Origin: Ascidia mentula
Taxonomy: Eukaryota; Chordata; Ascidiacea; Phlebobranchia; Ascidiidae
Direction: 5' to 3'
Length of the DNA: 64,000 nt
Assembly: GCA_947561715.1 (NCBI GenBank)
Contig: OX387197.1
Location: forward strand, 997,001 to 1,061,000
Shown here: one piece after another, positions 4,401 through 61,900 of the stretch
Numbering within the stretch: the stretch's first letter is position 1
Layout: every line of letters begins with the position of its first letter
Notes under the pieces: model-generated
Seen by the model: only the letters and a program-made list of their open reading frames with translations
The model's database searches: none
Told to the model about the DNA's origin: nothing
Translations under genes and position numbers: made by a program

Positions 4401-6591
4401 AGCAGGATCTTCAGAAGTGCCTTGAGGAGAGCGATGATTCAGAGGATTTGGATGATCATCTTCCCCAACAAGTTGAAAGTATTTTAAACTCAATTTGGAC
4501 GGAAGAAAGCAACTTTCCGCTCGAAGTGAATGCAGGCGTTCAAGCAAGTGATGAAAATGGAAATTATCTAAAACCAGACGCAAAGTTTTGTGAAAAGGAA
4601 TCTTGCGTCGACACTTCTTGCCTTTCTTGTTCAGTCCTAAAGACGTCGTTGGAAGGAGAAGGAGTGGATTTTCACGCTCTCGACTCTTCTATCAGCCGAG
4701 ATCTGGCGCTCCTCCACCAACAGATCGATGCAATTTCAGAAAATCTTCACTCGTTTAGCGAGAAGGCTGATGTTGGAATGGATTTGTCGAGGAAGCAAAT
4801 CTGGTTGAGAAATTCCAAGGGTTGTGACTATGGTTGGCCAGCAGAGTTTCTTCGTGGAATGCAACAAAATCAAGTGTTTTCTGACTACGGAAAGTGGTCT
4901 GAATGGGATGACTTTGCTGATGGGGAGTTTGGTAACCATGGTGACAAGACACACTTGATGCACGATTTTTTTGCCGATATGACTTCCACAGTGATTGAGT
5001 CGGCAAACTTGCAGTGGCTCAACTGGAGTTACATCAACCCTATGATGGACATTGATCGTCTCCTCCACTTCCAAACTACATCAGATGATGAGCTCGGTCA
5101 ACATCAGAGTAAAGAAGACGAGGAGGATCCCAGCTTCATTTCAGCGCTCGTCCAAAGTGTCCTTGAGTATGCAACCGATGCTGAAGATCAAAACCCTTTG
5201 ATGCTACGAGTCGATGTTGCAGAACACACAATGCTTGATGTTGACTGCCCTCTTCCTCATCCTGAAGATCAACTTCAGTTGTTTCCTCCAGACTCTCGCA
5301 ACCTCCAGGAGAAGTCCCAAAATTTGGCCGACTGTGTAACGGAGAACGAGGCATGGAAAACTTCTCTTCGCATCGGCAACATGTGGCAAGCGATCGCTGG
5401 AATACGTCCTGTTGATATCGTGTACAGCGAGAAGCACAACCCCACTGGCCCATGTGTGCTTCAGCCATCAGCAATGACTCATTTTAGGTAAGTTTTGTTG
5501 CTTCAAAATCCATCCACAATTAAGTTGATGAACTTTATCCTTACTACCATTCAGTCTCTAAATAACAATATCATTGTTATTTTATGGGCACTTTAAACCT
5601 AGACTACTAACATAACTTTATTTCAAATACTATTTGTATTTTGTGAAACAATACTATAAGTCTTTGTTCAAAATGTCAAAACGTTGTTGTGATAACAATC
5701 AAATATTATTCATACCAGACCCATTCATCAAAGTGACGAGAATGAAAACAACGCAACAGAAAACTCAGCCACATTTGAAACAAACACTTCTTATCATGGT
5801 ATTATCTCCATTAACTTGAACAAGACAAGTAAAAATCATCATTAATTTATTTTGTACGACTTGCTTAGTAGCTGTAGAGGAATCTAGCCCTCGGTTAGGC
5901 ATTGTTGTGTTATCTGCGACAGCAAATTACTTGGTTCGCATATATCATGAAGCAACAAGGCTCAGATTGAAGTCAGCAGATTTATTTGTAAAAAATCGAT
6001 TTCGCTAAATTTATTTTGTTTATATTTAAGTGGACACACTTTTGTCTTAGTGGTCAGAATTTTCCTTCTAATACTTTTCCTGTTTAGATGTTTTCAGTGG
6101 ATCCTACATGGCTGACATCTCGCCTAAAAAGCAGCAGTCGAGCAATCTACACAGTGAAGCTGTTGAGTTCCAACTAAAGAGCATCGAAAAAGGTTAAAAG
6201 TGTTTGTGTTGTACCCTTGTAATTTCCAGTTTTAGTAATTGGCTGTCTGAAAGTTGTGTCAACATTATTGGATGTGCCTGAAATCTTGACTGTTTAAATA
6301 ATATCCATTGCAAGTGTGACAATACTCTTTCAACTTTTCAAACATCTGATGAAAAATGTAAGGAATGTGCTGTAACCACACGTAGAATCTCGTGTTTTCT
6401 TTAAACCAGAAATCGGAAAGTTGTTGTTCGAAAACCCTTCGTGTAACGATGGAATCCAAAAGATCTGTCCCAAAAAACCTGGTCTGGATAAATCTCAACA
6501 AACGGGAATGTTCGAGCACCAGATCCAACTGATGGACAACGACCTTGAGAATGAGCTTGCAGGTCGTCCACCCAAAGCTAATTCGCGCTGA
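1482..6591 (+). CDS. KIAA0232: KIAA0232-like protein, 7 coding exons, 974 aa
   Basis: Exons read as 1482-1687, 1884-2080, 2968-3169, 3535-5487, 5719-5798, 6088-6192 and 6410-6591. All have GT-AG borders and matching phases, and together they give 975 codons including TGA. Recognition rests on the N-terminus: the frame has LQRWLASELELHKIDAVIYT followed by RHVLDIFL, close to human KIAA0232 as I remember it (a short helical block with GIDAMIYTRYVL). Exon 2 has a KK.MAAKCLLSA and LIEELCSKL-type block, and exon 3 has a YQDAFPLLF block with a Trp (VWG) soon after. Exon 4 (651 codons) is acidic, Ser-rich and mostly disordered in look, with a KWFRDPESGF motif matching the family LWYTEPI-type motif. 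It is shorter than the human protein (about 1,400 aa). The molecular function of this family is not established. ATG 1482 is the first in frame and precedes the conserved block. A possible ATTAAA poly(A) signal lies at 6606. Part of exons 4-5 is copied at 14874-16098. Confidence 0.85.
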
Positions 6592-8745: not shown

Positions 8746-11700
8746 TTACATGGAAACAACAGTAGCACCATAAACCACTTTTTCAGTTTCAAAACAAAAT
8801 GTCCAAACATCAGAAGTTGAATCGTAAACTTCAACTGATCTTAGGCCTTGATTATTGCTGTCACATCTGAGCAATTTTTTTGAAAAGAAAACATATTTTC
8901 AATCATATAATGGCAACTTCTAATTAATCCTGGTATTTAAACAAAACCGATGTTTTGTTAACAATTCTTTATGGACACCTACTCTAAACATTGTCTTAAT
9001 TCGATGGAAATAGTTCGTGCTTTCACAAGTGAAGTAATTGGATATGGAAAATTATTAATAAATATAATTATGTTAAAACAAAAATTTACCAATAAATGCT
9101 GCTTAAATTATCGCACACACAGAGATAGAAACATTCCTATGGACTAAGCATAAAAAATGCCTAGATTGTCAAACAATGTGATTTACTGGGATAGAAAATT
9201 TTATACAACATTACAAAAAACACAAACCTTACCCCCCTATGACGTAGATCTTGTTTTGTAAAACACAAGCAGAGTGACCACGACGAGCAGTTTTGAGTGA
9301 TGCAACATATTCCCATTTGTCATCTCCAGGTTTGTATCGTTCAACCGTTGACGTGGGTTCGCCATCGTTGTCTACTCCTCCTTACGGAAAAGAAAGGAAA
9401 TTTTCTTACCCAATTACTTCTAAAACAAAATTAGTTTGTTCAATATTCTCATAATATTAATTACCCATAGCATAGATGTATCCATTCACCACAGCACAAG
9501 ACATTTGGCATCTGACTTCATTGAGGGAAGGGATTTCTTTCCATTCATCAGCTTCAGCATCATAACATTCACATGAATCTAAACGTTTCTTGCTTAGACC
9601 TCCAATGCAGTAAAGTTTGTCTGAAATGAAAGTCAGTATGAATGTGATTATTACAATATTTGTCTTAATGGGTTTACCTACTGGTCCTATAAAAAAAAAT
9701 TGTATGTGCAACAGAGCCAGAAAAATCAATGGGAGTTTTTAAAAAAAAACTGTAGAAAACGCAAACATCACAACAGACAAAATAATTCAATGGGGGAGTC
9801 CATCTTGACCTTCCCACAGATACACCCGATGCTTACTTGATATTACTGGTTTTAATTCTTTTTTTACCATAATTATTATCGTATACAAATCATTTGACAT
9901 TATTATTGTTACTCACCATTACAAACAACAGTAGCATGGTATGATCGCTCATGCAACATATTCCTCATCTTCTCCCACTTTTTGTTGGTGATGTCAAGTT
10001 TTTCACAACTTGATCCATTTCCACCAGTTACATAAATAACATCTGTAGATTGATGGAACATTACATAACATTCTGCAGTCCAAACCTTTCACAATATTTA
10101 AATATTTCACTGTATGCTTACACTAACAACAAACTTTTTGTTCCTTGCAGCCTGTTTTGAAAGTTTTGATATCAATCATCAACATAGTAAATACAAAATC
10201 TAAGTTTATTTATGTTTATATGTTAAATTCTGTAAAGCGATCTGTGGACAGTTCAAACAGTGGATGTTTATTGAGGAAAATATATTTCGCCTAAAAAAGG
10301 CATCATCAGTTTCCCCCACAGCCAAATTGAAAAAGCAGAAACAAAAACTTGAAGTACCTAATGCAAATAGCAGTGTAAGTTTATACAAAATTTTAATTTC
10401 TCTGTACCCGGTAGAGCATGCGCAGTAAAAAGTTTGGAATCAGTGAATGTTCACAGTAAGGACAATGTGTCAGTCATTGTTGAAAAATGTAAAAATTTGT
10501 CATATCATACGACATGCTCAAACCAAGTTACTTAAATCAATCTTTACTTCAGTGGCCGTGGTTAACATTTAATTTAAAAGTGGTTTACATTTACTTGTTG
10601 GACTCTTAGACCCACAGACCCATAAAAACCACAAAGATATTTACTTCTGTAGAAACTATCTCAAGAAAGTCAGATGTCATCGATGAGAAATCAAGTTGGG
10701 AGAAAAGATTCACAAACAATTCTTCACGTTTATGCAAAATTTTAATTTATATCTAACAAATATATTTTCTATGAATAAAATAGCAAATATAACATAAAGT
10801 CAGTATACTTCTAACAAACACTAATAGGCAAATCTTATTAAAAATCTGCATGACATGCACACTTGAAATAATAATATCTAGAATTTTAAAGAGGTATGTG
10901 GACATTTCTGGCATTAGATATGAACAACTATTTCAAGCAATGTGAGGAATAGTATATTTGCAATAATATTCAAATTTGTTTGATTCAATGCTGCCACAAA
11001 GGAAACTAGGTTTCCTGCCAAACACCCTAACTTTATATAATTTTTTGTCACATTTCTACAAGCTAATTTTGTTCTCAAATATCTGTAATTCTGATTTTTT
11101 GTTCCCTTGTTTGTTTTGTGTGAGAAGAGTTTTCAACTAACATACAGACCCCCAATTCGGGCACACATACTTAATGTATTTAACTTAACTTTATGCAACA
11201 TAATAGCAATGTGAAATATAATCTAAGTCAAATACCAACATACCTTTGACACATCCTGATCCACACCATTGTCTTTCTTCCAACATATCAGGCATTTTAC
11301 TCCAAGTATTTTCATCTAAATCCAAAACTTGACATTTCTTTCCACCACCATCATCACCATCACCACCTTCACCTCCCATGACATAAACCTTTCTCCCACA
11401 TCTTGTTGATGTCAAACAAGATCGACCGGGGTTTAATTCCTGTTCAACATCAAACAATTCAAACATTTACATACATTTTTTTCTAATAAAATTATACTTA
11501 TTTAATGAATTAAAACACAAAACCAAGTGCACTTACAGCAAGGTGCTTTGATTTCATTGCTTTGATGTTGTACACAAAACAATCTGATTTTGTGTAATAT
11601 CCACCAATTATGAGAAACTCTGTTTAAAAATCAGTGGTTAATGTTGGTGAAATAAATAAATATTCATATTTGTTGGCAAATAACTCACCCACGCACAACA

Positions 11701-14873: not shown

Positions 14874-16098
14874 AAACCATGTACCGTCCCAACCAGACTG
14901 ACTCACCTGAAGCTGGGCAACTCTGGGAGGATTACAAGGCAATTTTCACTGATGTGGAGCAGGATCTCCAGAAGTGCCTTGAGGAGAGCGATGACTCAGA
15001 TGAGTTGGACGATTCAAGCAAGTGATGAAAATGGAAATTATCTGAAACCAGACGCAAAGTTTTGTGAAAAGGAATCTTGCGTCGACACTTCTTGCCTTTC
15101 TTGTTCAGTCCTAAAGACGTCGTTGGAAGGAGGAGTAGATTTTCACGCTCTCGACTCTTCTATCAGCCGAGATCTGGCGCTCCTCCACCAACAGATCGAT
15201 GCAATTTCAGAAAATCTCCACTCGTTTAGCGAGAAGGCTGATGTTGGAATGGATTTGTCGAGGAAGCAAATCTGGTTGAGAAATTCCCAGGGTTGTGACT
15301 ATGGTTGGCCAGCAGAGTTTCTTCGTGGAATGCAACAAAATCAAGTGTTTTCTGATTACGGAAAGTGGTCTGAATGGGATGACTTTGCTGATGGGGAGTT
15401 TGGTAACCATGGTGACAAGACACACTTGATGCACGATTTTTTTGCCGATATGACTTCCACAGTGATTGGATCGGCAAACTTGCAGTGGCTCAACTGGAGT
15501 TACATCAACCCTATGATGGACATCAATCGTCTCCTCCACTTCCAAACTACATCAGATGATGAGCTCGGTCAACATCAGAGTAAAGAAGACGAGGAGGATC
15601 CCAGCTTCATTTCAGCGCTCGTCCAAAGTGTCCTTGAGTACGCAACCGATGCGGAAGATCAAAATCCTTTGATGCTGCGAGTCGATGTTGCAGAACACAC
15701 AATGCTTGATGTTGACTGCCCTCTTCCTCATCCTGAAGATCAACTTCAGTTGTTTCCTCCAGACTCTCGCAACCTCCAGGAGAAGTCCCAAAATTTGGCC
15801 GACTGTGTAACGGAGAACGAGGCGTGGAAAACTTCTCTTCGCATCGGCAACATGTGGCAAGCGATCGCTGGAATACGTCCTGTTGATATTTATGGACATT
15901 TTAAACCTAGACTACCCAAACAACTTTATTTCAAATACTTTTTATATTTTGTGAAGCAGTAATATAAGTCTTTGTTCAAAATGTCAAAACGTTGTTGTGA
16001 TAACAATCAAATATTATTCATACCAGACCCATTTATCAAAGTGACGAGAATGAAAACAACGCAACAGAAAACTCAGCCACATTCGAAACAAACACTTA
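14874..16098 (+). pseudogene. Partial copy of the KIAA0232-like gene (exon 4 to exon 5)
   Basis: This copy corresponds to source 4316-5788: most of exon 4, intron 4 and the first part of exon 5. By eye it is about 98% identical where aligned. It has two internal deletions: about 75 bp matching roughly 4463-4537, which shifts the frame, and about 165 bp matching roughly 5417-5582, which removes the exon 4 end and its splice donor. A long open frame (residues QASDENG to RPVDI) survives after the first deletion only because the copy is young. It has no start exon or 3' exons and lies antisense to the Kelch array. It is a fragment, not a working gene. Confidence 0.9.
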
Positions 16099-40600: not shown

Positions 40601-43600
40601 CAAGACTGGTGGTCGCCAAGCAGGGCTAGCATACTTCCCATGAAAACCGACGGTTTCTTGTCACCTAAGGGAGGCATGTTGAGGAGACGGGCTGCGCGTC
40701 CTTGCCGGGAAAGAACTCAATAAATGTAAATTTAAAAACGTTGTTGCTTTTGTGAAGCTTCCATTTTTCAGGTGGTTAATTCCCTCCCACCCCACTCACC
40801 ATTACAAACAACAGTAGCATGGCCACATCTCTTATGCAACATATTCCTCATCCTCTCCCACTTTTTGTTGGCGATGTCAAGTTTTTCACAACTTGATCCA
40901 TTGGACAACCCACCAGTTACATAAATAAAACCTGTAGACAGATGGAACATTGTAATAAATACATCACACGTACTTCAGTGAGCAGTATCTGTAACTTAAT
41001 GATGGAAATGTGTCTGGATATGAACGATGGTGATCTCACATTATTGAACCGCGAGTTATTTGCTACATAATAAATGAACATCTACTTATTTTCGCCATCT
41101 GAAACTTCGTACTATGCTGTGTCGGAATAATAGATGACTTTAAGGTCATACTACACGACAGAAATGGCGTTAACCTAATGTCTCGTGGCCCTAGAAAATG
41201 AGGTTTCACCAATCAGTTCTGCATGTCACACAATGAACGCAGTGATGTCATAATAGAACTTTTGTAACAAAAAAATGTATCAGTGCCAGTGAAAGAAGCA
41301 ATATATTGCACACGGAAAAAAAAAACATTTGCCACCTCTGAAAAAATTTCGTAGGAGTACTTTAAACTTATGGAAATACAATTTTTTATCGGCAATATAG
41401 CATAACAAATTTTTTGACTTGTAAATGCAATGAAAGTTTCAGGCCTTTCCATAGTTATGTTAGTTTGTGGCCAACTCTGCTTGACTTTCACTGGTTGTGC
41501 CACTGCATCATAATATGCTTTCATCAGAGAACACAATAAAAACTGTTGTTTTTACATTCTAAAAGAGGTAACAACAATTTTATGTAATCAGATTAGCTAT
41601 CTGCATTCATATCAGTAAACTTGAGCGTCAAACAAAATGAATGCAAACAATTTTTTACCTTTGACAAATCCTGATCCACAATGCACTCGTTCTTCCAACA
41701 TATCAGGCATTTCACTCCAAGTATTTTCATCTAAATCCAAAACTTGACATTTTTTTTCACCACCTTCACCTCCCATGACATAAACCTTTCTTCCACATCT
41801 TGTTGATGTCAAATCATATCGACCAGGGCTGAGTTTCTGTTCAAATTACCACAAGTTTATTTCTACCTTTCTAATATTTCTGTAAAGTTTAGGTCAGCTT
41901 AATAATGAGGTTTGGTCACAGCTTACCTCCATGTGTTTTGATTGTTTTTTCATTACGTCATACATGATACAATCTTCTCTTGAATATTCACCACCAATTA
42001 CAAGAAACACTTTATAGGACAAAAATAATTATAGCATTGCAATATAAGTGAAAGTTAATTTGCACAACTTACAAGGTAAACATTTCTTTACTATTCTGGT
42101 CAATCCATCAACAAGCATGTTGGCACACACCAAGTTATCTCTTACAAGATTCTGAAAAATACATTTCAACAATTAATTCCACAAATTCAGTCCATGAAAA
42201 CCAACAAATCATTGTAATTTGTGAAAAAAGTCTGAACTCTCGTTGCATTTATGAATACAAGATATCTAAACTCACAGCCTTGGAAACTTGTTCAAGAAAG
42301 TCAGATGTCATCGATGAGAGATCAAGTTGGGAGAAAAGATTCACAAACAATTCTTCACGTTGATGAGGATTATAATTAACCCACTTCACAATTCCACTGA
42401 AAACAAATTCCTCACAATTCTACAAAAGACATAAAGTTTTCAGAAAGACTTTTTTCTAATGCTGTCACAGATTGAATGTTGATAATCTTTGGATTTGAAA
42501 AACTGTGGGTTAATGCGGATTATTTAATACCTGTAATTCATAAACATATCGCAATTCAAAAGTCTACTTTAATTTCAGCTCACCATTTTTCGTTAAATCT
42601 TTGTTTATCGTATTTAACTATTTATATACATTGACTAGTATCATTCTTGCTGCTGCATTTTCAATGGATTTTTAGATTAATTACTAAGAGAAAACTGTAA
42701 CTGAAAGATAAAAGCAATCAAAATGTAACAATACCTTTCCCCTCTGTTTGATGATTGCAGACATATCATCAACATCAAGTTGCATGAAATCATCATGTTG
42801 TACAACTGTTGCAATGTTATCAACAATCATTTTGTTTAGTTTCTTTTCCACATCAGCAAGATTGTATCGAGTAGCATAAGCTCTTAGTTTCACACAACTA
42901 TCAGTTGTAACCATGTGAAGAATGTGGTGACCACAGAACGTCTTCAAATCTGCAGGTTTTGGTAAAGAAATTATTTAGGTGTGTGGCTAAACTTCATTTT
43001 TTCATTGTTTTACATTTTAGAATATCAACATCTTATATTAAATCCATGTAGTAACGAATTTCTTGTAAGAAACATGAAAACCTTTGGTTTTATGAACTTT
43101 TATTATTTCAATTGTCAACCCAAGACAAAAAACATTGTACTATATGTGACAAACTCACAAACACTGTAAGTAAAATAATTTTGTGCATAATTTTGTCCTA
43201 CCATCCATTTGCATGTAATTAGCATCTTCCAACACTTCCAACACATTGTCTTCTGTTAATTCAATATCACCAGTGTAAATATAATCCAATACACTTTCCA
43301 GTCTTTTAGGTGGAATTGTGTCAAGATTTATTTTCTCATCATATTTTTCTTTCATCTGTACAAAAATTCAAGTTAAAAAAAACCCTAAACTAAACACAAG
43401 AAACCAAGTAAATGCAGTGAAATGCTTCTTGTATAATGAACTAGTTGATAATTTTCAAAAATACTTTTAATTTCCATGAATGTGTGACTGAAGGTTATGA
43501 TGAAATGTGTTTGGAAACTTTACCATGTGACAATAATTTATTAACCATCACAGATTCATACGTCTTAAAAATTAAATAATTATAATTTAAAATCAGGATT

Positions 43601-44561
43601 CGAACATTCCTAATTAAAGATGGTTGCAGGCTAGAGTTTTAAATAAAACATGAGTTTAGCGGTTGATGCCTTATTGCGAGAGTTGCGAGTCAAACAAGAG
43701 TGAGGAACACAAAAACAAGACTATATAAGAGTAGCAACCGTGACACAAGAAAAAGGCAATAGCACGCTTCGATGCACAGGCAAACACCGCCACAAGTCAT
43801 AAATAGATTTATCTCAGAAACTAACAAAATAAACCAAAATTAAAGAACAAAATAAGCCACAATGACCAACAAGATGAAGACAGTGCACACTGTCTGTTAC
43901 CCAATCATGCAACACTATAGGATACCAATGATGTTTTTTGGTACCTGGTTATGTGCACAAAATAGATCGGAATTCACAAAAAAGTACCATGAAGTGCTTG
44001 TCTAGTTAATAATGTAGATCGGTCTCAGTCATCAGATGCACTGATAAAACCTTATAGGTTGAAACCTTCTGTGCACTACTGTCTGCAGCCCATTTAAACA
44101 AATAAAACATTTTACCTCAGTGGTTAACATTCCCTTAAAATATCGAGACATGGAAGCAACGATTCCATCATTTATTGGGAAGTTTTCTCCTTGGGAATAA
44201 AGTGTTTTGTTGCAAAATTGCTTGGAACTTTTTCTGTCACTGAAAGGAAGGAAATAGTTAAATTCTGGTGTTTACAGAAACAGAGTCTATGTATTGCACC
44301 CTGGCACTATCTGCTTGTTGTAGTGGCAATAAACTGACTGAATGCATTTTAATTTGTGTAGCACTCACATATGGACATATTGTATGTATTAACCATAACA
44401 CAATGTATTTATTTTTCCTACATATGACAACTGTACATATGGTAATTGTACATTTTTGGGGCTGGTCTTAAAACAAAAGTTTTATACAGATAAACTTACA
44501 GGTTAAGAAAATCCATTATTTTCTGATTGTGTATTTTTATTTCTTCTTCTGTTCGCCGCAT
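37685..44561 (-). CDS. Kelch gene D: BTB-BACK-Kelch protein, 12 exons, 528 aa
   Basis: Exons: 44500-44561, 44116-44239, 43202-43355, 42735-42949, 42276-42419, 42073-42151, 41927-42009, 41659-41836, 40800-40931, 39708-39866, 39041-39188, 37685-37793. Phases match genes A and B and no stop interrupts. BTB is exons 1-3 (start MRRTEEEIKIHNQKIMDFLN), BACK exons 4-6 (LRAYATRYNLADVEKKLNKM), Kelch exons 7-12 (VIGG, VMGG, VTGG, CIGG, FAIGG and a closing VEVYDPTCDVW). Exon 6 is six bases longer than in A-C and the C-terminus is SAVAL instead of TVVS, marking a D/E/F subfamily. The BTB core again lacks the usual Asp and His (FCNKTLYSQG, FPINDGIVA). CUL3-adaptor function is inferred from the architecture. 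Intron 11 carries a hAT element with a nested SINE, and intron 2 a hammerhead-like repeat. Confidence 0.9.
37967..38891. mobile_element. Non-autonomous hAT element with perfect 8-bp target duplication
   Basis: The left end CAGGGGTGCACAACCT is matched in inverse at the right end (aggttgtgcaccgctg). The element is flanked on both sides by ctttaaac (37959-37966 and 38892-38899). The paralogous introns show a single, unfilled site: ctttaaac at 47952-47959 in gene E and ctctaaac at 59202-59209 in gene F. The element therefore inserted in intron 11 of gene D after the units had separated. No transposase frame is seen. A SINE is nested at 38396-38645. Confidence 0.9.
38396..38645 (+). mobile_element. 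tRNA-headed SINE nested in the hAT element
   Basis: The insert is flanked by 14-bp direct repeats tcaccgatatacta (38382-38395 and 38646-38659). Within it, about 38483-38555 folds like a tRNA, with D-arm gctc..gagc, T-arm gtgag..ctcac and a paired acceptor. It has an A box (tagctcagttgg) and a B box (gagttcaaacctc). A family body follows that also occurs at 30062-30130 and 32142-32208. The tRNA region is not at the left edge: about 90 bp precede it. The other copies show this is an interspersed family rather than a single tRNA gene. Confidence 0.75.
39221..39282 (-). repeat. tRNA-like SINE relic in gene D intron 10
   Basis: On the - strand it begins ggtggcgctattggtaaaca and ends with a B-box, gggttcaaatcccaa. 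The spacing fits a degraded tRNA-derived head. Gene F has a partial match at about 59541-59572 (tgtttaccaatggcgccacc), so the relic predates the unit duplication. Confidence 0.45.
40207..40722. repeat. Intron-9 repeat shared by genes D, E and F (copy D)
   Basis: The block from cttcctctcgctagaggttc to gttgaggagacgggctgcgc recurs in intron 9 of gene E (49250-49632 plus 50527-50600) and gene F (60329-60770). It was in the ancestral unit. No frame or family is recognised. GC content is higher than its surroundings, which hints at a decayed mobile element. Confidence 0.65.
44033..44090 (+). ncRNA. Degenerate hammerhead-ribozyme motif, copy in gene D intron 2
   Basis: The order of parts is TGCA, CTGATAA, AACC-ttata-GGTT, GAAAC, a short palindrome GTGCAC, then GTC and TGCAGC. 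This matches stem I, conserved core, stem II, GAAA, stem III, cleavage triplet and the return of stem I of a type I hammerhead. The core departs from CTGANGA at one base and stem III is short, so self-cleavage is doubtful. It sits at the 3' end of a repeat also found at 54345-54580. Confidence 0.5.
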
Positions 44562-46409
44562 GGTGGTAAGACGTTATTTATCAAACTGTGACATTAATTA
44601 AGGAAAGAGTATCAAAATAAAGAATGATAATTTGGGCACTCAAAACAAAACTTTACAGAAAGTTTGGTAAAATTACATAATATGGTTGCTCTGCCAAAAG
44701 TAATGCCTAACGTGGATATAATGTGCGTAATTGCATTGATAAATTCGTGTTGATGAAGTTCGCTTTAATAATTTAACAAACATAAACAATAACAACTACT
44801 ATGATCTCTGGTTTCTATGACTACGGGGAATTCCCTGAGGAAAAACAAAAGTATTGGCATAGAAATCTTAAATGCAATTGTGCAAAAATATTAGTGATAT
44901 TTTAATAAAATGCCACAGGAAAAAAAGAGACAGTTAGATTTTTAAAAACCGTATAAATTACATAAATTATATTAAGATCAAGGTAAAATCTAAGCTTCAT
45001 CAGCAGCATCAACATGCGGTGTAAGTAACAAGAAAAGAAATTAGCAGACCGTCATTTATCAGAACAATGTGGCGACTTACTTTTAGAACCTGTTTCAACA
45101 AAATACTCATGTAAAGTTAATGGGTGTAGGATTGCCAAATTATTGTAAGTGATGAATAAAGAATGAACGTCTCGGTAATAAAGAAAATCACACAGAAGCG
45201 TTCGGCAACTTATCTTTACGTTGGTTCAAAATGTTCTTCGTTTCCTGAGCAACATTCAAAATGAAAAGCTTATCATCAACGTTACGTCATCAACTACCAG
45301 AAGTCCACAGGAACAACGTTAAGAAAAACTTAAGTTAAAGAACGCTAAGCTGAAGTTAAAGAAAGCATAAGCTGAAGCTGAAGCTGAAGAAAAGCGCAGG
45401 GCAGCAGAAGCTGAGGTCGAGGCTGTAGCGATAAACGCAACAATGCTCAGGCAAGGGCACATGAACTGGTAATCAAGCGGCCGGAGCTATGATTTGACAA
45501 ACATGGGTGCAAGTCGACTAGATAATGCAGCGCCTAACTAAGCAAAAGCAAAGACGCCTAACGTCCAGCATTTGTGAACGGTAACGACGAACTGGATAGC
45601 TATACCTTCTGCGTGCGGTTTGCTGCAAACTGTAGGTGGGACAAGGCCGAGTGGCTTCAGCTTTGAGCGCGGTTTTAGCGGGGGGTGTTTTGGATGCATA
45701 TTCTCGTCTCTCCGATACAGAAGCTGTGGACTATGACATGCAGTCTCGTGGAGAAGTTCAACGGTACTTTATAGAAGATGTTGAAACCACGGTGTTGCGA
45801 TCAGCCAAAACTGTGGAACAGGATTATTAACGCGTTGCTTTTTCTATGCCCTGAGGTTCCGCAATCGTCAATATGATTTCCGCCAATTTACTTTACGGGA
45901 GATCGATGTGTCGACTTTTCGACAATTCATGACTGGGGAAAGCAACAATTTTCGACCTATGCTGAACGAATCGGTGTCATTGTATCAACCAACATTACAT
46001 AAATAGTTAAGTATTTGGGCTCATTGATAAATCAGCAGACTTTTTCTGATCGTTGTTTCTGCACTCGATTAGTATCCAGTCCGCTGAAACCCCCTGAACA
46101 CCGAAACAATCACAATGGAACGTTGACCGCCAAGTTCGTGACATTTTACCCGTTTTACTGCGAACCTCCACGCATGCAAGTAAAATATTGCAATGTTCGC
46201 GAAAGTTTTGTTTTATTTGTCGTTACTACCGAAATATTGTCCACTTTTAGGGGAAAAATTTGGGAAAATCTAACATGTCCAATCTATTTTCAACCGGAAT
46301 GCGCGTCGCTTTTGGGGGTTCTTCATAAAGACGTTAATAGAATCCGACTAAACCATTATTTCATCGTACTGTGATGCGTCGTATTTTTCCCACACTCATT
46401 AATTCACTG
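44562..46409. other. Region between gene D and the second tandem unit, with a gypsy-like fossil
   Basis: The 5' flank of gene D (about 44562-45200) resembles the 5' flank of gene E (about 55034-56200), so promoter elements are probably shared. The remainder carries LTR-retrotransposon debris (listed separately) and a stretch at 45930-46400 related to the repeat blocks near 36600-36900. No host coding exon is recognised. Confidence 0.5.
45300..45915 (+). mobile_element. Ty3/gypsy-like LTR retrotransposon fossil, internal fragment
   Basis: The left part resembles the start of a gypsy-type gag (Glu/Ala/Lys-rich coiled-coil sequence, then a WDK.EW block typical of gag). The right part resembles the C-terminal region of integrase. 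The reverse transcriptase region is absent. It matches 56900-57550, which has the same gag-to-integrase build. It is heavily broken, with many breaks, and no LTR pair was identified. Age appears older than the D/E unit split, or similar to it. Confidence 0.65.
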
Positions 46410-50600: not shown

Positions 50601-53600
50601 GTAGAATGGCTTGGTAATAGCCGTTGCAAAACCAAACACAAAACCAAATTCATGCAGTAAGAAAGCTTTTTTTTCTTATCAACAACTTATAATATTTTCC
50701 TAACCAAATGGAATGCACTGAAATGTATTTCTATGGATATAAGCAGTCTACTTCATAAAGCAATGCCAATCTTGTCATTCAAGAAATGAATAAATCTGTT
50801 ATCGTTTACAGAAAATTCAAATTTTTGTAAAATCTTCCATTCTTCAGTTAGTTAATTCCCATCCCAACCCACTCACCATTACAAACAACAGAGCCATGGT
50901 TCGATCTCCCATGCAACATATTCCTCATCCTCTCCCACTTTCTGTTGGTGATGTCAAGTTTTTCACAACTTGATCCATTGTCCCTCCCACCAGTTACATA
51001 AATAAAACCTGTAGACAGATGGAACATTGTAATAAATACATCACACATACTTTAGTGAGCAGTATCGTTACTGTAGCAAAATAATGGAAATGTGTTTGGA
51101 TATGATGGTGGTGATCTTACATTATTAACTGCGAGATATTCGCTACATAAGTCGGGGATCCAGGCATCTCGGCGCGAAAAACGACAAAATGCAGAAAATG
51201 AATGCAGAACATCAACTTATTTTTGCCATCTGAAACCTAGCCCTATCTGTGTCGAAATAATAGACGACTGTGAAGTTATACTACGACAGAAACGGGGACT
51301 AGGACTGTAAATCACATGAACTTTTACAGGGAACCAAACGAAACAGAACACGTTTCTATGGACACGTTTTTTTATTTTCATTGAGCCGACGAAAAAGACT
51401 ATTTACATTAGAAAGATTGAAACACCAAATTTTAAAAATTATGATTTTTAAAATAGACTGCTCTTCTGGCGTAAAATTAACGGATTGTATTGTTTTGACG
51501 TTTCTTCTGCCATTCAGCGAGACTTGAAAATAACGTCAGTCAGTCAGTAACAGGTGTGACCCATAAAAATAGGCCCTTTGTTTTGCGCCATATAAGATAA
51601 GGTTTCATCAATCAGTTCTGCTTGGGTCAAACTAAATACAGTGATGCAATAATGGAACCTTTGTTAAATCATTGTGTGACATCATAATTCAAGTAATGAT
51701 AGTAAGAAAAACAAAGAAAGCCTTTTGAATATTGAAATCCCGTGTATTTAAAAATTGACAAAACTGCATCATTATGCTTAAATTTTTTCAATCTGGTGAT
51801 CCAAGATATTCGAGGAATGCTGTGCCATACCAGGTTTGTTGGCAATACCAATTCTGTGTGGTTGTGACGAAACTTCAAAGTTTTCAGGTCTATTCGCGTT
51901 TTGTTGGTAAAATATTTATGTTAGTTTGTGGCCAACTCTGCTTAACTTATTTGTGCCACTGCATGTTACCAAGCCTTCTTTACAATACCCACAAAAAACT
52001 GCTGTTTTTAAACTTGCAACAAAACTGAGTTTTTCAAACTTTTTCACATAATCAGTTTAAAAATTAGCATTCAAGACAGCAAATATTTGTCAACATTTGA
52101 CTGTGAACCAAAATGAATGTAAATATCCCTTTTTACCTTTGACAAATGCTGATCCACAATGCACTCGTTCTTCCAACATATCAGGCATTTCACTCCAAGT
52201 ATTTTCATCTAAATCCAAAACTTGACATTTCTTTTCACCACCATCACCTCCCATGACATAAACCTTTCTCCCACATCTTGTTGATGTCAATCTAGATCGA
52301 CCAGGGTTGAGTTTCTGTTCATATTACTACAAGTTTAATTCCACCTTTCTACTTTTTTCTGAATTCAGCTTAATATCGAGGTTTGCAAGTAATTTTTTGG
52401 GCACATTTTAAACATATTTTCCTTAAAACCGAAACAATATTCTATCGCAAAAAACTTTAGGATTAAGTCCTTGTAAAATTGGATAGAACTGATCAGAAAA
52501 CTTTGATAAGTTCTAATTTTATTTTCTTTAGTAATATCCTGCAATTAAAAGCAGACTATAATAGTCACAGTTTACCTGTTTGTGTTTTAATTGTTTTGTG
52601 ATGACATCATAACTGATACAATCTTCTTTTGAATACCGACCCCCGATTACAAGAAGTTCTGAAATTACCATTGTAATACATAAATAAAGTAAATCTTTTA
52701 TCCGTATCACTTACCACTGGAAGGTATTCGATGCCTGACATATTTTTTGTATCCACCAACGAGCATGTTTAAACACACCACATTTTCCCTCACAAGATTC
52801 TGAAACAACATAGAAGCAAAAAAACATTTTTTATTTTTTCCAAAGCTAACGATGCGTATATTTTAAAGCATTAATCAACATAACATATCGCCATAAACTC
52901 ACATCCATTGAAACTTGTTCAAGAAATGCAGATGTCATCGATGAGAGATCAAGTTGGGAGAAAAGATTCACAAACAATTCTTCACGTTGATGAGGATTAT
53001 AATTAACCCACTTCACAATTCCACTGAAAACAAATTCCTCGCAATTCTACAAAAAAACATTATTGAATATCTATAACTAATAAACATAACACAATTTATT
53101 AGTTTACTTTATTTTACATTACATTTTTATTTATCGTATTTACCTGTTTATATACATTGACTGGTATCATTTATGCTGCTTTATTTTCAATGGCTTTAAG
53201 ATTAATTACTAAGCAAAAACTTTCACTGAAAGATTAAAGCAATCAAAAGGCAACAACACCTTTCCCCTCTGTTTGATGATTGCGGAAATATCACCAACAT
53301 CAAGTTGCATGAAATCATCATGTTGTACAACTGTTGCAATGTTATCAACAATCATTTGGTTTAGTTTCTTTTCCACATCAGCAAGATTGTATCGAGTAGC
53401 ATAAGCTCTTAGTTTCACGCAACTATCAGTTGTAACCATGTGAAGAATGTAGCGACCACAGAACGTCTTCAAATCTACAGATTTTATGTAAAGTAATCAT
53501 TTAAGTTATTTTTTCAAACATCAACATCCTACATAAAAACGTATGTGCAAAAAAATGCCATAATAATAATAGAAAGCTGCAGACAGGGCAGACAGGTATG

Positions 53601-55033
53601 TACACACTTATTATGGCTTTTTTTACATATATCATTTGCGTTTAACCCCGAGTTGGTAGCACTATCGGATTTAAGCAGTCGTTAGGCCATAGTGCGGTCC
53701 ATGGTGGTTTGTCTCTCTTGTTTTGGTACCCAATGGATCAACTTTGACCGAAAGGTACCACAAAGTAGGAATCTATGTGCTCCCTAGTATAGAAGCTAGG
53801 ACAGTGCCACATTTAACAGCTGCATTGATGAGACCTTACAGGGTCGAAACAGTGTGTACACCCTGTCTGCAGCTCTCAATTGTATGAAAACCTGGTAGTA
53901 ACAAAAATTGTCAACCTTTGACATAAAAACCTTGTAATTTGAGAAACAAACATACAAACGATAAAAGTAACATATGCTTTGCAACACCTACCATCCATTT
54001 GCATGTAATTAGCATCTTCCAACACTTCTAACACGTTTTCTTCTGTTAATTCAATATCACCAGTGTAAATATAATCCAATACACTTTCCAGTCTTTTAGG
54101 TGGAATTGTGTCAAGATTTATTTTCTCATCATATTTTTCTTTCATCTGTGCAAAAACTAGAATTTAAAATACCTTAAACCAAACACAAGAAACCCAGTAA
54201 ATACAGTGAAATGCTTCAGTATGTTGAAGTTGTGGATAATTATCAAAAAATATGTTTAAATTCAATGAATGTGTGATTAAAGGTTATGATGAAATGTGTA
54301 CAGAAACTTAAAAACAATTTCCAAAATAAAAAAATATATCAGAATAAGCCACAATGACCAATAAACAGTGCACACTGTCTGATACCCAAGCATGCAACAC
54401 TACAGGATACCCAACGATTTTGTTTGGTACCTGGTTATGTGAACAAAATGGATCGACGTTCACAAAAATAGTACCATGAAGTGCTTGTTTAGTTAATAAT
54501 GTAGATCGGTCCCAGTAACCAGATGCACCGATGAAACCTTATAGGTCGAAACCTTCTGTGCACTACTGTCTGCAGCCCATTTAAACAAATACACATTTAC
54601 CTCAGTGGTTAACATTCCCTTAAAATATCGAGACATGGAAGCAACCATTCCATCATTTATTGGGAAGTTTTCTCCTTGGGAATAAAGTGTTTTGTTGCAA
54701 AATTGCTTTGAACTTTTTCTGTCACTGAAAGGAAGGAAATAGTTAAATTCTGGTGTTTACAGAAACAGAATCTATGTGTTGCACCATCCCACTTTCTGCT
54801 TGTTGTAGTGGCAATAAACTGACTGAATGCAGTTTAACTTGTAAAGAACTCACATATAGAGATATTATATGTATCCAACATAACACAATTCATTTATTTT
54901 TTCTACATACAGTAATTGCACATTTTTAGCGCTGGTCTCAACACAAAAAAGTTCTTGACAGATAAACTTACAGGTTAAGAAAATCCATTATCTTTTGGTT
55001 ATGCAAGTTTATTTCTTCTTCTGTTCGCCGCAT
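47681..55033 (-). CDS. Kelch gene E: BTB-BACK-Kelch protein, 12 exons, 527 aa
   Basis: Exons: 54972-55033, 54601-54724, 53992-54145, 53260-53474, 52903-53046, 52715-52799, 52576-52658, 52137-52314, 50877-51008, 48619-48774, 48103-48244, 47681-47789. Phases fit and the frame is open to TGA at 47681-47683. Domains: BTB in exons 1-3 with RLESVLDYIYTGDIEL, BACK in exons 4-6, six Kelch blades in exons 7-12 (VIGGRYSKEDC, VMGGDGG, VTGGRDNG, CIGGWGGKR, a GGTNGKR blade two codons shorter than in D, and VEVYDPTCDVW). It is closest to genes D and F in exon 6 length, exon 7 sequence and the AVAL C-terminus. Intron 9 holds a private 894-bp insertion, and introns 2 and 3 each carry a hammerhead-like repeat. 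A CUL3-adaptor role is inferred, with the array's BTB core changes as a caution. Confidence 0.9.
49250..49632. repeat. Intron-9 repeat shared by genes D, E and F (copy E, left part)
   Basis: This is the same block as 40207-40722 and 60329-60770, here split by an insertion at 49633-50526. The right part resumes at 50527 with cctaaaggaggcatgttgag. Confidence 0.65.
49633..50526. mobile_element. 894-bp insertion in gene E intron 9, family unknown
   Basis: Genes D and F read continuously (cacctaagggaggcatgttg), while gene E is interrupted. It has cctgaaggacgcat at 49619-49632 and cctaaaggaggcat at 50527-50540, a degenerate 14-bp target duplication. The insert contains a stretch related to 27585-27900 and a pair of 57-bp inverted arms at 50163-50219 and 50400-50456. 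No transposase or reverse transcriptase frame is seen. Confidence 0.7.
50163..50456. repeat. Imperfect inverted repeat, 57-bp arms
   Basis: The left arm (50163-50219) contains gatcttccaggaggc and the right arm (50400-50456) contains gcctcctggaagatc. The arms also share the tatacccccctgt / acaggggggtata block. The spacer is about 180 bp without an open frame. It may be a small inverted-ended element within the larger insertion, or a structural part of it. Confidence 0.75.
53573..53876. mobile_element. Repeat with inverted ends and a hammerhead-like 3' end, gene E intron 3
   Basis: The left end reads gctgcagacaggg and the right end ccctgtctgcagc, its exact complement. The right 57 bp form a hammerhead-like fold (53818-53874). 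The middle part, from ggtaccc onward, is related to the repeats in intron 2 of genes D and E. Gene D has no counterpart at the matching place in intron 3, so it may be a later insertion. Confidence 0.6.
53818..53874 (+). ncRNA. Hammerhead-ribozyme motif, best of three copies
   Basis: Stem I is AGCTGCA at 53818-53824 pairing with TGCAGCT at 53868-53874 (7 of 7). Between them are TTGATGA, stem II GACC-ttacag-GGTC, GAAA, stem III CAG..GTG/CAC..CTG, and TC just before the stem I return (cleavage triplet GTC). All strands are in type I hammerhead order. The only core departure is T for C at the first base of CTGATGA, which is expected to impair cleavage. The two other copies carry C at that base. 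Confidence 0.6.
54345..54580 (+). mobile_element. Hammerhead-bearing repeat in gene E intron 2, shared with gene D
   Basis: It is nearly the same as gene D 43857-44092 at the same intron position, so it was present before D and E split. The last part (54520-54578) has CCGATGA, AACC-ttata-GGTC, GAAAC, GTGCAC and GTC-TGCAGC in hammerhead order. One core base departs from CTGANGA. No coding frame. Length and lack of frames suggest a small non-autonomous retroelement. Confidence 0.55.
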
Positions 55034-56480
55034 GGTGGTTAAGAATTATTAAATCAACTCAAGATAGCTTTATCCTGCTGTTTTATCAAACTGTGACATC
55101 AATTAAGGAAAGAGCATCAAAATAAAGAAAGATAATTTGGGCATTCAAAACAAAACTTTACAGAAAGGTTTTGTAACTTTTTATCATATGGTTGCTCTAC
55201 CAAAGTAATGCTTAACGTTAATATAATGTAAAAGAATTAATAAATTTATGTTGATGAAGGTCGCTTTAATGATTAAACAAACATAAACAGTAACAATTAC
55301 CTATTATGAAATATGATTTCTATGATTACGGGAAATTCCCTGACAAAAACAAAAGTATTGCCATAGAAATCCTAATAGCCGGTCTCTTCATTTAAAGAAA
55401 TTATGGAGTGGTTGTTTATAAACCACCCCCACATTTTTTGAATATCTCACCTTGAATAAAGAAATGATGTGCTTTTTTTGAAACATTTATGAAGAACAAC
55501 AATGCGTGTTTTTGTGTTCTTTATTCATGCAAATATTTATTCAGATTCCACGTCCAACGTATAAACTGTGATGAGGAATGGAATTTCTCTGCTTGACAGT
55601 GTCAGTGACGTCATAATTCGTTATTTTGATTGCGCCTGATTTGATATGTTTTTTTCGGTGCTTGTGCGTTTATTGTACAAAATACTAGTGATATTTTGAT
55701 TTATTGCCACAGGAAAGTAAGTGACTGACAGATGGTTGAAACCGTTGGTATCAATTTCATGTGAAACATATTAAGGCCAAGCTATATCAGCAGCATTGAC
55801 ATGCGGTACACGTAACATTAGCAGACCGTGACGATTACATTTCAAAATGTGTTTCTCACATGAAGCGATTAAAACGTTGTTTATCCTTACATTTGCTTTT
55901 TTCTAAATGCATCATTGTTTTATGTAATAATTATTATGACCCAACAATATGTGTTATCAACAGGTGGCGTGCTTAAAAACCTGAAGTTTTGAATACTGGG
56001 GGAAGATGGTCTAAAACATTTGAATAAATCCACGGGTTCCAATAAAGCCCACCGGCAAGATTTTTCTCAACCATCGGAAAGATGTGCCGACTTACTTTTA
56101 AAACCTGTTTCAATAAAATACCTTCGTGAAATTTATGGGTGCAGGATTGCCAAATTATTGTAAGTGATGAATAAAGAATGAACATCTCGGTAATAAAGAA
56201 ATCACACAGAAGCGTTCATCAACTTGTCTTTACGTTGGTTCAAAATGTTTTTTGTTTTCTCAGCGGTTTTTGGTAGGAAATGCTTAACATCAACGTGACG
56301 TCATCAACTACCAGAAGTCCACGGGAACAACGATTTCACAGCATGTAGAGAACACGTGGCATGCGAATGTTCGAGAAACGACAATTCTGAAAACGACAGA
56401 TTCAAACGTATGTTGAACGAATCGGTGTCATCGTATTAACCAACGTACGCAACATCACATAAATAGGTAAGTATTTGGAC
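55034..56480. other. 5' flank of gene E and a block of LTR-associated repeat
   Basis: 55034-56210 resembles the flank of gene D (44562-45200), with an extra stretch near 55380-55990. It should hold the gene E promoter. 56220-56480 is another copy of the repeat block seen at 36440-36650, 47050-47200 and 57830-58010. No host gene is recognised. Confidence 0.5.
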
Positions 56481-58930: not shown

Positions 58931-61900
58931 TTACAAAGCAACAGCGGCACCGTAGGAAAAATTCTTCTGAAGATCAAAACACTTCGTCCAAACATCACAA
59001 GTTGGGTCGTAAACTTCAACCGATGTCAATGCTCCTTCACTGTCACAACATAAACATTTCTGATATTTATAAACATAATGTTTACAAACTCAATGCAAAA
59101 GTAAATTTACTACAAACAATTTTTCACAACAATAATACATCTATAATGGACACATAACCTGTAAAACTATGTAAACAGTTTGAGTCTCATAAAAATCGTC
59201 GCTCTAAACTAAATATCAAGTCCAGTCATGAGGTAACCGAATTTCAATCCACTGATCTTTTCAACCAACATTTCTACAATGGGAACTTACAACTGCGACT
59301 GCTGGATCGATAAAATTTAAAAAATTATCAAAATTCAGATAAATTGTTGCTTACCCCCCTATAGCAAATATCTTGTTAAGTAAAACACAAGCAGAGTGAC
59401 CGCGACGAGCAGTTTGGAGTGATACAACATATTCCCATTTGTCATCTCCAGGTTTGTATCGTTCAACTGTTGATATGGGTTTGCCATTGTTGTCTAATCC
59501 TCCTTTGGAAACAAAGAAAGGATATTTAACTGTTTTTTTCAATGCTATGTTTACCAATGGCGCCACCTGGTGAACAACAAACTATGAGATAAATCGAGGG
59601 AAATCCAACCACAAAAATAATATGAGACACAGAAATGACCAAATATAAAAACAAATAACAAATACATCTTCTCAGTTAGGTTTCATTTTATAATAAGTAT
59701 AGTATTTCAAACCATGCTTTGGAACTTGTTTTTCTACAAATTTTTCATGTACTGACAACAAAACCATGTGATACAAAGTTTAACCAGACTTAACAAAGTT
59801 TTGAAATAAAATCCTCATTAAGTCAAATTGCAATTTTTCAGAAATAAACATAAATTAGAAAAGGCATATCAACCCATAAAACATTTAGTTGCAATATTAA
59901 TCTTTATAATCACATTAACAGAAATAATTTACACCTGACGAAGCGAGGGAAATCGCGAAAGCTTGTGTACTGTTTACATTACAAAAGTCAGTCTTTTGCA
60001 AAAGAGTGCCAATCAGAGAAAGAAATTAACAGAACAGTAAAGTTATTACCTATGACATAGATGTATCCATCCAAAACAACACAAGCTACATCACATCTTG
60101 CTTCATTGAGAGAAGGGATTTCTTTCCATTCATCAACCTCAGCATCATAACATTCACATGAATCTAAACGTTTGTTCCCATGACCTCCAATGCAGTAAAG
60201 CAAATCTTGAAGAAAAAATACATTGTTAAATCTTTTGAGAACTGTGGATTGAACTTTTGTCCGCAATCTTGGTAGAATGCAAGTGTCGTGCTTTAATAAC
60301 GTTGCAGGGGTCGTAAGTTGCGCCGTGGCCTTCCTCTCGCTGGAGGTACCGCAACCAGAACTGATTGTTTAACATGGGCCGGGTGGACGTTTTGTCTTAC
60401 ACTTGTAAAACCTTGTGTGTGCCATCGTATGGCCTTGTCAGTGGAGGTCGGTAAACATCGCGGCGACCAAATACATAAGGGCTGGGATTCATTGAGGACA
60501 GACGCCCAAAGGTTATTGTGGCGTGACATCGGTTGCGGCTTACAGGGTATCCCGTAAAGACGACAAAGACTTGGTGGTGGCGTCACTTAAATGGGCAAGA
60601 AAATCTCCAGGAACTGTTAAAGCGGTGCTGCAAGAACAAGTGCTCATAAAGAAAATAAGTCTGGTGGGCGCCTAGCAGAGCTAGCATACTTCCCATGAAA
60701 ACCGACGGTTTCACCTAAGGGAGGCATGTTGAGGAGACGGGCTGCGCGTTCTTGTCGGGAAAGGGCAAATAACTGCAGCAAGCGTTACAGAATGGCTTGG
60801 TACTTGCCGTTGCAAAACCAAATAACTTTATATTTGATTTTTAAAGTTGTTTGAAGGCTTACAAATTTATTTTATTAACAACTTCCAATTTTGTCCTTAA
60901 CAAATGGAATGTACTGCAATGTATTTCTACAGATATGAGCAGTCTATAATCCATCAACATAAAGCAAAGTCAAGTTTGTAATTGTTGTTCTTTTTGTGAA
61001 GCTTCCATTCTTTAGTTAGTTAAGTCCCAACTCACCCCACTCACCATTACAAACAACAGAACCATGGTTCTGTCGCGCATGCAACATATTCCTCATCCTC
61101 TCCCACTTTTTGTTGGTGATGTCAAGTTTTTCACAGCTTGATCCATTGAACTTCCCACCAGTTACATAAATAAAATCTGTAGACAGATGGAACATTGTTA
61201 TTTAACTGCTTTGTCGCAACCCTCGTGTCTTGTGGATTAAAATTGTACAAAGTTGTTGTTCATGAAAAAGTAAACCCATTTATCGCAAAGATGATACAGT
61301 AGAACTCGGTTAATCCTGTATAACACCAGCGTTGATTGCGCGAAAAGCATTGTCCGAATTGACTATTTTGTCATAATAATGATGGTTAGTCAATCTATGT
61401 TGCATTGCAAATATAAGTAGATATTATGAATGAAAATGTGACAGAAACCTGACTTCTTCTCCACCAAAATACAGAATAGGCTACAGCTTCATACATACGA
61501 ATTCGGTAAATTACTGGATATACCGAAACAAAATTATTTTCTTTTAATTATAAATTTATTGTGACATCATTTTTACCTGGTTTGTCTTTACCATGGTACA
61601 CAAATACTTTTGGTGTTACCCAAAAAATATGTCTAATATTTCGCGGCCCTAAAAGATAAGGTTTAACCAATCAGTTCTGCTTGCAGCACAATAAGCATAG
61701 TGATGTAATCATGAAACCTTTCTGAAATCATTGTCAGACAACATAACTTAAATAACGATAGTAAGAAAAACAAAGATTGCCAATTGACGATTGGAATCCT
61801 GCGTATGGAAAACTTGACAAAAGTGCATGATTATACTTAAATTTTGGGCAATCTGGTGAGCCAAGTTATTTGCGGACAGCTGTGTTATATCAGGTTTGTT

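What the first reader, a model, noticed from the sequence alone, without database searches (positions are those of the whole stretch)
53818..53874. Hammerhead-ribozyme fold in an intronic repeat; three copies in the window
Three related repeats (ends at 44090, 53874, 54578) keep the type I hammerhead order of stem I, CTGATGA-like core, stem II, GAAA, stem III and GTC cleavage site. Each copy has a different single departure in the core, and their majority sequence is the canonical CTGATGA, as expected if a working ribozyme element seeded them. Hammerheads are known in Penelope-like and small non-autonomous retroelements of animals. Here they sit in introns of Kelch genes.
Basis: partly seen in the sequence, partly recalled or inferred. 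Interest (0 to 1): 0.8.

Follow-up and report, generated by a model that had tools for sequence, protein, structure and literature searches.

The report
Hammerhead retrozymes carrying Penelope-type insertion marks
The repeat is a decayed copy of a small RNA element with a self-cutting hammerhead motif that has spread through a sea squirt genome, and the way its copies sit in the DNA points to Penelope-like jumping genes as the machinery that copied it.

Summary
The hammerhead is real. The window is Ascidia mentula chromosome 1 (contig length 27,920,005 equals the published longest scaffold). At 53818-53874 the three stems of a type I hammerhead pair, with one core change (TTGATGA). The copies near 44090 and 54578 are one older, degenerate insertion duplicated with its Kelch gene.

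Genome-wide, 1,489 exact-core pattern matches exist against 0 for the reversed pattern. Those examined fall mainly into two related groups, ~285 and ~293 bp, sometimes tandem (six hammerheads in L092). This fits metazoan retrozymes: a new family of a known kind.

The added result concerns mobilisation. Retrozyme copies and GIY-YIG Penelope-like elements (PLEs) of this genome share head-to-head polarity (10 of 10 and 22 of 22 close opposite-strand neighbours listed) and a longer 3' end on only one of two arms (retrozymes 11 of 15 by threshold, 13 of 15 on reading; PLE families 13 of 17 and 5 of 8). Published work calls that "tail" unique to PLEs. This supports the unproven idea that PLEs move retrozymes.

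Not testable here: self-cleavage, circular RNA, enzyme use. Against: no covariation, and whole-unit folds do not favour helices I and III.

The parts
53541..53879 (+). retrozyme insertion, family B-like, head-to-head: truncated inverted left arm plus longer right arm
   Evidence: interval 53507-53905 (399 bp) against 129 bp in the paralogue 42981-43109, and shared with L007; limits read by eye
53818..53874 (+). type I hammerhead, core TTGATGA (one departure), C17 at 53867
   Evidence: 100 shuffles
53541..53581 (-). left arm 3' tail, long form (41 nt past the cleavage position)
53868..53879 (+). right arm 3' tail, short form (12 nt past the cleavage position)
   Evidence: by eye; the script gave 53 nt from what I take to be a chance repeat
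53529..53540 (.). left copy of a proposed decayed target-site duplication, CTACATAAAAAC
   Evidence: by eye, 8 of 12 letters equal to 53880-53891; no chance test made
53880..53891 (.). right copy of the proposed decayed duplication, TTGTATGAAAAC
   Evidence: by eye
54365..54585 (+). older retrozyme copy (similarity extent; limits not defined), hammerhead remnant 54524-54574, core CCGATGA
43880..44098 (+). duplicate of the same older insertion, hammerhead remnant 44037-44087, core CTGATAA
59924..60024 (+). solo piece of a Penelope-like element (L093 family), ending near that family's short end
   Evidence: 93% over 106 bp to L093; 10-bp repeat ATTAACAGAA at 59914-59923 and 60025-60034
59930..59969 (+). 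minimal PLE-type hammerhead without a real stem III
   Evidence: same descriptor gives 2 hits in 60 shuffled windows
10272..10318 (-). minimal PLE-type hammerhead in an L094-family fragment (10267-10370, 75% identity)

Best explanation
These are dead copies of a retrozyme: a non-coding retroelement of about 285-293 bp with a type I hammerhead at one end of its unit. Most likely a tandem source is transcribed, the hammerhead cuts the RNA into units and a host ligase closes some into circles (inferred from the literature). A reverse transcriptase with GIY-YIG endonuclease from an autonomous Penelope-like element then nicks both target strands about 12 bp apart and starts copying at one of two internal sites just downstream of the hammerhead cleavage point, reading around a circle or along a multimer (inferred). 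The result is units, sometimes in tandem, joined head-to-head with both 3' ends outward, one arm with the short end and the other with an end 23-41 nt later, flanked by a short target duplication. Shown here: hammerhead sequences, tandem units, polarity, the two end classes, duplications at part of the copies, and PLEs of the same genome with the same polarity and tail rule. Inferred: cleavage, circles and the enzyme's action. The window copies are decayed passengers between Kelch exons.
For: 1,489 exact-core matches against 0+0 reversed. Units A (285-286 bp) and B (293 bp), GC 0.47 and 0.46, are 66-70% identical where alignable, yet read the same in core and helices except the outermost helix I pair. 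Six tandem hammerheads in L092 with a 12-bp duplication. Border repeats of 9 nt or more in 23 of 80 intervals against 0.8% of 2,000 mismatched pairs. Polarity 10 of 10 and 22 of 22. One-arm tails: retrozymes 11 of 15, PLE families 13 of 17 and 5 of 8. 150 GIY-YIG matches, many in open frames of 730-953 aa; L093 and L094 frames match RVT_1 and GIY-YIG. Both PLE families carry a minimal hammerhead upstream of their end sites. Tail literature: PMC11167929 (parts 1-2 of 4 read), PMC3846280 (passages).
Against: No covariation clearly above shuffles in 44 copies. No Rfam hammerhead model over its cut-off. In folds of the whole linear unit helix II is almost certain (0.98 or more) but the helix III closing pair has probability only 0.03-0.04 and helix I 0.04-0.54; the isolated B hammerhead folds as expected, the isolated A one does not. 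57 of 80 intervals show no border repeat of 9 nt. Four of 15 elements miss the tail thresholds; on reading L027 is short/short and L061 unclear; a cruder count gave 14 of 19. L015 units are 96.9% alike, no closer than units of other loci, which does not favour a single circle there. No sequence shared by retrozyme and a given PLE beyond chance-length matches. No RNA data.
Confidence: 0.8

Rival explanations
1. Retrozymes moved by a LINE-type reverse transcriptase, not a PLE.
For: The 2020 retrozyme paper leaves LINEs open (PMC7229834, Discussion read). Duplications of this length also occur with LINEs (recalled).
Against: Arms with both 3' ends outward, 10 of 10, and a one-arm tail in most of the elements examined match PLEs of the same genome. 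The tail is called unique to PLEs (PMC11167929).
Confidence: 0.12
2. The units are solo pseudo-LTRs of an unsampled autonomous PLE, not independent retrozymes.
For: PLE pLTRs carry hammerheads and occur alone; the window holds such a solo piece at 59924-60024. Three of the loci around hammerhead-family matches (L009, L023, L060) also hold PLE-like frames; L009 has a GIY-YIG frame about 0.9 kb from a hammerhead on the other strand.
Against: Units repeat directly every 285-295 bp with nothing between (L092, L015). None of 7 GIY-YIG matches on C1 below 11.17 Mb lies within 47 kb of a listed exact-core hammerhead. Only two PLE families were read in full, so one with this pLTR may exist.
Confidence: 0.15
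3. A DNA transposon (MITE) with terminal inverted repeats that happens to include a hammerhead-like sequence.
For: Inverted ends such as CTGCAGACAGGG at 53577 and CCCTGTCTGCAG at 53861, and target duplications.
Against: Arms vary in length, units stand in tandem, one arm usually ends later than the other, and some copies are single-orientation.
Confidence: 0.03
4. Chance hammerhead-like fold in an ordinary repeat.
For: In the window alone 1 of 100 shuffles scores as high; no Rfam hit over threshold; whole-unit folds do not favour helices I and III.
Against: 1,489 exact-core matches against 0.
Confidence: 0.01

Closest known systems
Metazoan non-LTR retrozymes (Cervera and de la Pena 2020, PMC7229834; parts 1-3 of 6 and Discussion read)
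   Same: type I hammerhead, unit within 170-400 nt, GC under 50%, tandem copies, duplications longer than 4 bp, PLEs in the same genome
   Different: head-to-head copies with a one-arm tail are described here and I did not see them in the parts read; no RNA evidence here; helix I has no obvious internal loop for the helix I-II contact (by eye)
Penelope-like elements with minimal hammerheads (Frangieh 2024, PMC11167929; Arkhipova 2013, PMC3846280)
   Same: hammerhead upstream of two 3' end sites, head-to-head arms, one-arm tail; AT-rich duplications by eye
   Different: no reverse transcriptase frame seen in the retrozyme unit, and a 4-bp helix III where the PLE hammerheads read here have almost none
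Newt and axolotl satellite hammerheads (as described in PMC7229834)
   Same: tandem repeats of similar length; often a palindromic helix III loop that could allow dimers
   Different: helix III here is 4 bp, not 1-2 bp

Membership tests
hammerhead ribozyme, type I | conserved core, three helices, helix I open | tested here: met
   exact core and helices in 53 distinct copies of L001-L092 and 1,489 pattern matches; the window copy has one core change
hammerhead ribozyme, type I | score above the Rfam RF00163 cut-off | tested here: not met
   best RF00163 score 19.4 against 34 in 8 loci; 0 in the genome, but the control rang nowhere
hammerhead ribozyme, type I | compensatory changes in helices | tested here: inconclusive
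   91.5% of cells paired; covariation score reached by 31 of 500 shuffles
hammerhead ribozyme, type I | fold favoured within the whole unit | tested here: not met
   helix II yes; helices I and III poorly favoured by the energy model, which knows no tertiary contacts
hammerhead ribozyme, type I | self-cleavage | not testable with these tools
   needs an RNA assay
metazoan retrozyme | unit of 170-400 nt, GC under 50% | tested here: met
   285-293 bp, GC 0.46-0.47
metazoan retrozyme | tandem units with hammerhead | tested here: met
   L092 six, L015 three
metazoan retrozyme | target duplication longer than 4 bp, when present | tested here: met
   23 of 80 intervals with 9 nt or more against 0.8% control
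metazoan retrozyme | expressed as linear and circular RNA | not testable with these tools
   no RNA data held
Penelope-like element | RT plus GIY-YIG frame | tested here: not met
   no open frame over 121 aa in the L092 array; its frames were not scanned against Pfam
Penelope-like element | head-to-head arms with one-arm tail | tested here: met
   11 of 15 by threshold

The most novel reading that the evidence does not exclude
Metazoan retrozymes are parasites of Penelope-like elements: their insertions bear the PLE-type one-arm tail, so a PLE enzyme copies them from two internal start sites placed just after the hammerhead cleavage point, on circular or multimeric RNA.
Probability: 0.7. Interest if true: 0.7.

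Novelty: new member of a known kind. Interest (0 to 1): 0.55.

Why it matters
Which enzyme moves animal retrozymes has been open; PLEs were proposed because both occur in tandem, both carry type I hammerheads and both were found together (PMC7229834). In one genome this work finds a shared, countable mark of the insertion reaction itself. The same count can be run on any assembly that holds both elements. It also adds a tunicate with many intact-looking hammerheads.

Tried and rejected
A PLE flanked by the retrozyme's own hammerheads was sought among same-strand pairs about 5 kb apart; the one fetched (L091) holds serine-protease-like frames (by eye) and none that looks like an RT. Sequence shared between PLE non-coding ends and the loci was sought; matches to hammerhead units were of chance length. 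Covariation was tested and gave no support. A snoRNA reading (RF00054, 20.6 bits against 39, E 0.19) was dropped. The palindromic helix III loop (mean 5.4 against 3.0 in shuffled loops, 20 distinct loops) fits dimeric cleavage, but the loops are related by descent, so this is suggestive only. One search chose anchors that already contained TGCAG, so it cannot show that no copy ends at the cleavage site, whose query was not chosen that way, 28 of the 29 places L002-L030 run 7-13 letters past that point (query position 298). Hammerhead and helix numbering are recalled usage.

Full report
Identity of the sequence. The genome behind the window has 195,842,439 bases in 79 contigs. The contig that holds the window at 997001-1061000 has 27,920,005 bases. 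That is exactly the longest scaffold of the Ascidia mentula assembly kaAscMent1.1, and the nine published chromosome lengths agree with the nine large contigs seen here, a few being slightly shorter (PMC11109543, passages seen). The window is therefore taken to be A. mentula chromosome 1.

The observation. At 53818-53874 the sequence reads stem I AGCTGCA, core TTGATGA, stem II GACCT/GGGTC-type pairing with one extra loop base, GAA, stem III ACAG/CTGT, C17, stem I TGCAGCT. One core position departs (C3 to T). A relaxed descriptor found 27 hits in 100 shuffled windows, one with an equal score, so the window alone is moderate evidence. The other two copies are weaker, each with one core change (CTGATAA and CCGATGA), four base pairs in stem I and almost no stem III. 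They lie in one duplicated block, 43815-44871 against 54301-55375 at 84%, with further relatives at C1:1061870, 1072865 and 1087829. So the three copies are two insertions.

The main window copy is an insertion. Between matching flanks it has 399 bp (53507-53905) where the paralogue has 129 (42981-43109), and L007 shares it. In L007 the hammerhead core is deleted. The nearby Kelch-family frames (BACK, Kelch, BTB) are on the minus strand, so the hammerhead strand is antisense to them.

Genome-wide test. The pattern with exact CTGATGA, stem II letters, GAAA and TGTCTGCA gave 765 + 724 = 1,489 matches, against 0 + 0 for the pattern read backwards; only the first 100 places were listed. In L001-L092, 53 exact-core hammerheads with distinct context had helix I of 7 bp in 41 and helix III of 4 bp in 47. 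Of 44 aligned copies (3 from the window and 41 of the 60 loci found by similarity), 21 have the exact core. Pairing stands at 91.5% of cells, but the covariation score is reached by 31 of 500 shuffles, so the structure rests on conserved sequence matching the known motif, not on compensatory change. Rfam hammerhead models stay below their cut-offs in the 8 loci tested: best RF00163 19.4 against 34, RF00008 34.9 against 48.5, RF03152 29.3 against 56.3. The genome search with RF00163 found nothing, but its controls also rang nowhere.

Two groups. Unit A is 285-286 bp (L092, six hammerheads at spacings 285, 286, 285, 285, 285). Unit B is 293-295 bp (L015, three hammerheads). GC is 0.47 and 0.46, and they are 66-70% identical where alignable. 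As closed circles they fold at -90.0 and -89.3 kcal/mol, z -2.2 and -3.3 against 100 shuffles. Against the reading: in folds of the whole linear unit helix II is near certain, but the helix III closing pair has probability 0.025 (A) and 0.036 (B), and the first two helix I pairs 0.18 and 0.54 (A), 0.04 and 0.06 (B); isolated, B folds as a hammerhead and A into another form. The energy model knows no hammerhead tertiary contacts, and the 2020 paper reports that most metazoan circles let the hammerhead form, so this is a real difference or a limit of the model. In L092 three of five full units are identical and the other two 98.6-99.7% like the rest, as one circular template would give; in L015 the two full units are 96.9% alike, no closer than units at other loci.

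How they insert. Of 108 intervals, 80 were long enough and clear of locus ends; 23 of the 80 have an exact repeat of 9 nt or more at the two borders, against 0.8% for 2,000 pairs of borders from different intervals. Eighteen of the 23 remain after overlapping loci and segmental duplicates are removed, 14 of them 11-14 bp, and at least one (L083) is element sequence. The other 57 show no such repeat. Among the 100 hammerheads listed, all 10 opposite-strand neighbours within 1 kb are (-,+), meaning 3' ends outward, and the 7 same-strand neighbours are 284-286 bp apart. The 150 GIY-YIG matches show the same: 22 of 22 opposite-strand neighbours within 6 kb are (-,+). Binomial chances are 0.002 and 5e-7; duplicated loci are not removed from these counts.

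The tail. [quoted passage not shown] PMC3846280, passages). A first, crude regex count on retrozymes gave one long and one short arm in 14 of 19 elements. In the 15 distinct head-to-head elements with a border repeat of 8 nt or more, 11 have one arm ending 16 nt or less past the hammerhead cleavage position and the other 34 nt or more. Of the four others, the window element (L001) and L012 were mis-measured, in my reading, because the script chose a repeat other than the target duplication; the letters give long/short for both. L027 is short/short and L061 unclear. That makes 13 of 15 on reading. Of four further elements with shorter repeats, two meet the thresholds. In the same genome the L093 PLE family ends 60-65 or 99-105 nt past its own hammerhead position, with 13 of 17 head-to-head groups having one of each at their outer ends; the L094 family ends 65-69 or 140-144, with 5 of 8. 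Only 40 of 330 and 40 of 621 candidates were scored. Some of the 17 look like segmental duplicates (three on C1, two on C52), which I did not remove. The misses include one equal pair (C67:6425556/6429284), groups with nested neighbours, and rows where the alignment stops early or runs the full query.

The partner. L093 and L094 hold open frames of 892 and 953 aa with RVT_1 and GIY-YIG matches, the two L094 ones just below their curated cut-offs, in tandem units of 2,870 and 3,493 bp. Both carry a minimal hammerhead with one extra base before stem II and no real helix III, at L093:520-560 and L094:848-893. The descriptor, fitted after I had seen these two, gives 2 hits in 60 shuffled windows and two in the real window, at 59930-59969 (+) and 10272-10318 (-), each in a stretch similar to one of these PLE families. 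So the order is shared: hammerhead, cleavage point, short end, long end. I found no sequence shared between a retrozyme and these PLEs that would name the partner.

Literature. Animal retrozymes are defined in PMC7229834 (parts 1-3 of 6 and the Discussion read): tandem type I hammerhead repeats, 170-400 nt, low GC, circular RNAs, PLEs a strong candidate for mobilisation. A search for retrozyme, Penelope and head-to-head together found no paper, and Ascidia mentula with retrotransposon none; the library lacks most subscription papers, including two relevant ones. Nine type I hammerhead loci were reported in another tunicate, Didemnum vexillum (PMC8704543, one passage). I therefore claim a new family of a known kind, and a line of evidence on its mobilisation that I did not find in print by these searches, not a new kind.

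Limits. Cleavage, circles, expression and enzyme use are inferred.

Noticed in passing
window 59924-60024: Solo piece of an L093-family Penelope-like element with a minimal hammerhead and a 10-bp target repeat, ending near that family's short end.
   Followed up: yes
window 10267-10370 (-): Stretch 75% like the L094 PLE family with a second minimal hammerhead.
   Followed up: partly
G000 C67:6134028-6147185 and C52:9243186-9260519: Head-to-head tandem arrays of Penelope-like elements with several open frames of 885-953 aa; repeats 100% identical over the 300-701 nt compared.
   Followed up: partly
helix III loops in the fetched loci: 13 of 20 distinct helix III loops hold a palindrome of 6 or more letters (TGGCCA, GTGTACAC, GTGTATACAC, GTGCAC and others), which would allow dimeric hammerheads.
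   Followed up: partly
L009:1677 (+) and L009:2376-3224 (-): A hammerhead-family copy lies under 1 kb from a GIY-YIG frame on the other strand; L023 and L060 also hold PLE-like frames.
   Followed up: partly
L093:633-639, L094:953-959 and 1033-1039: The heptamer GATACGG lies near the end sites of both PLE families; seen by eye, not tested.
   Followed up: no
window 4539-5418 and 15013-15889: An 880-bp, 98% identical duplicated stretch with long open frames that gave no Pfam match.
   Followed up: no
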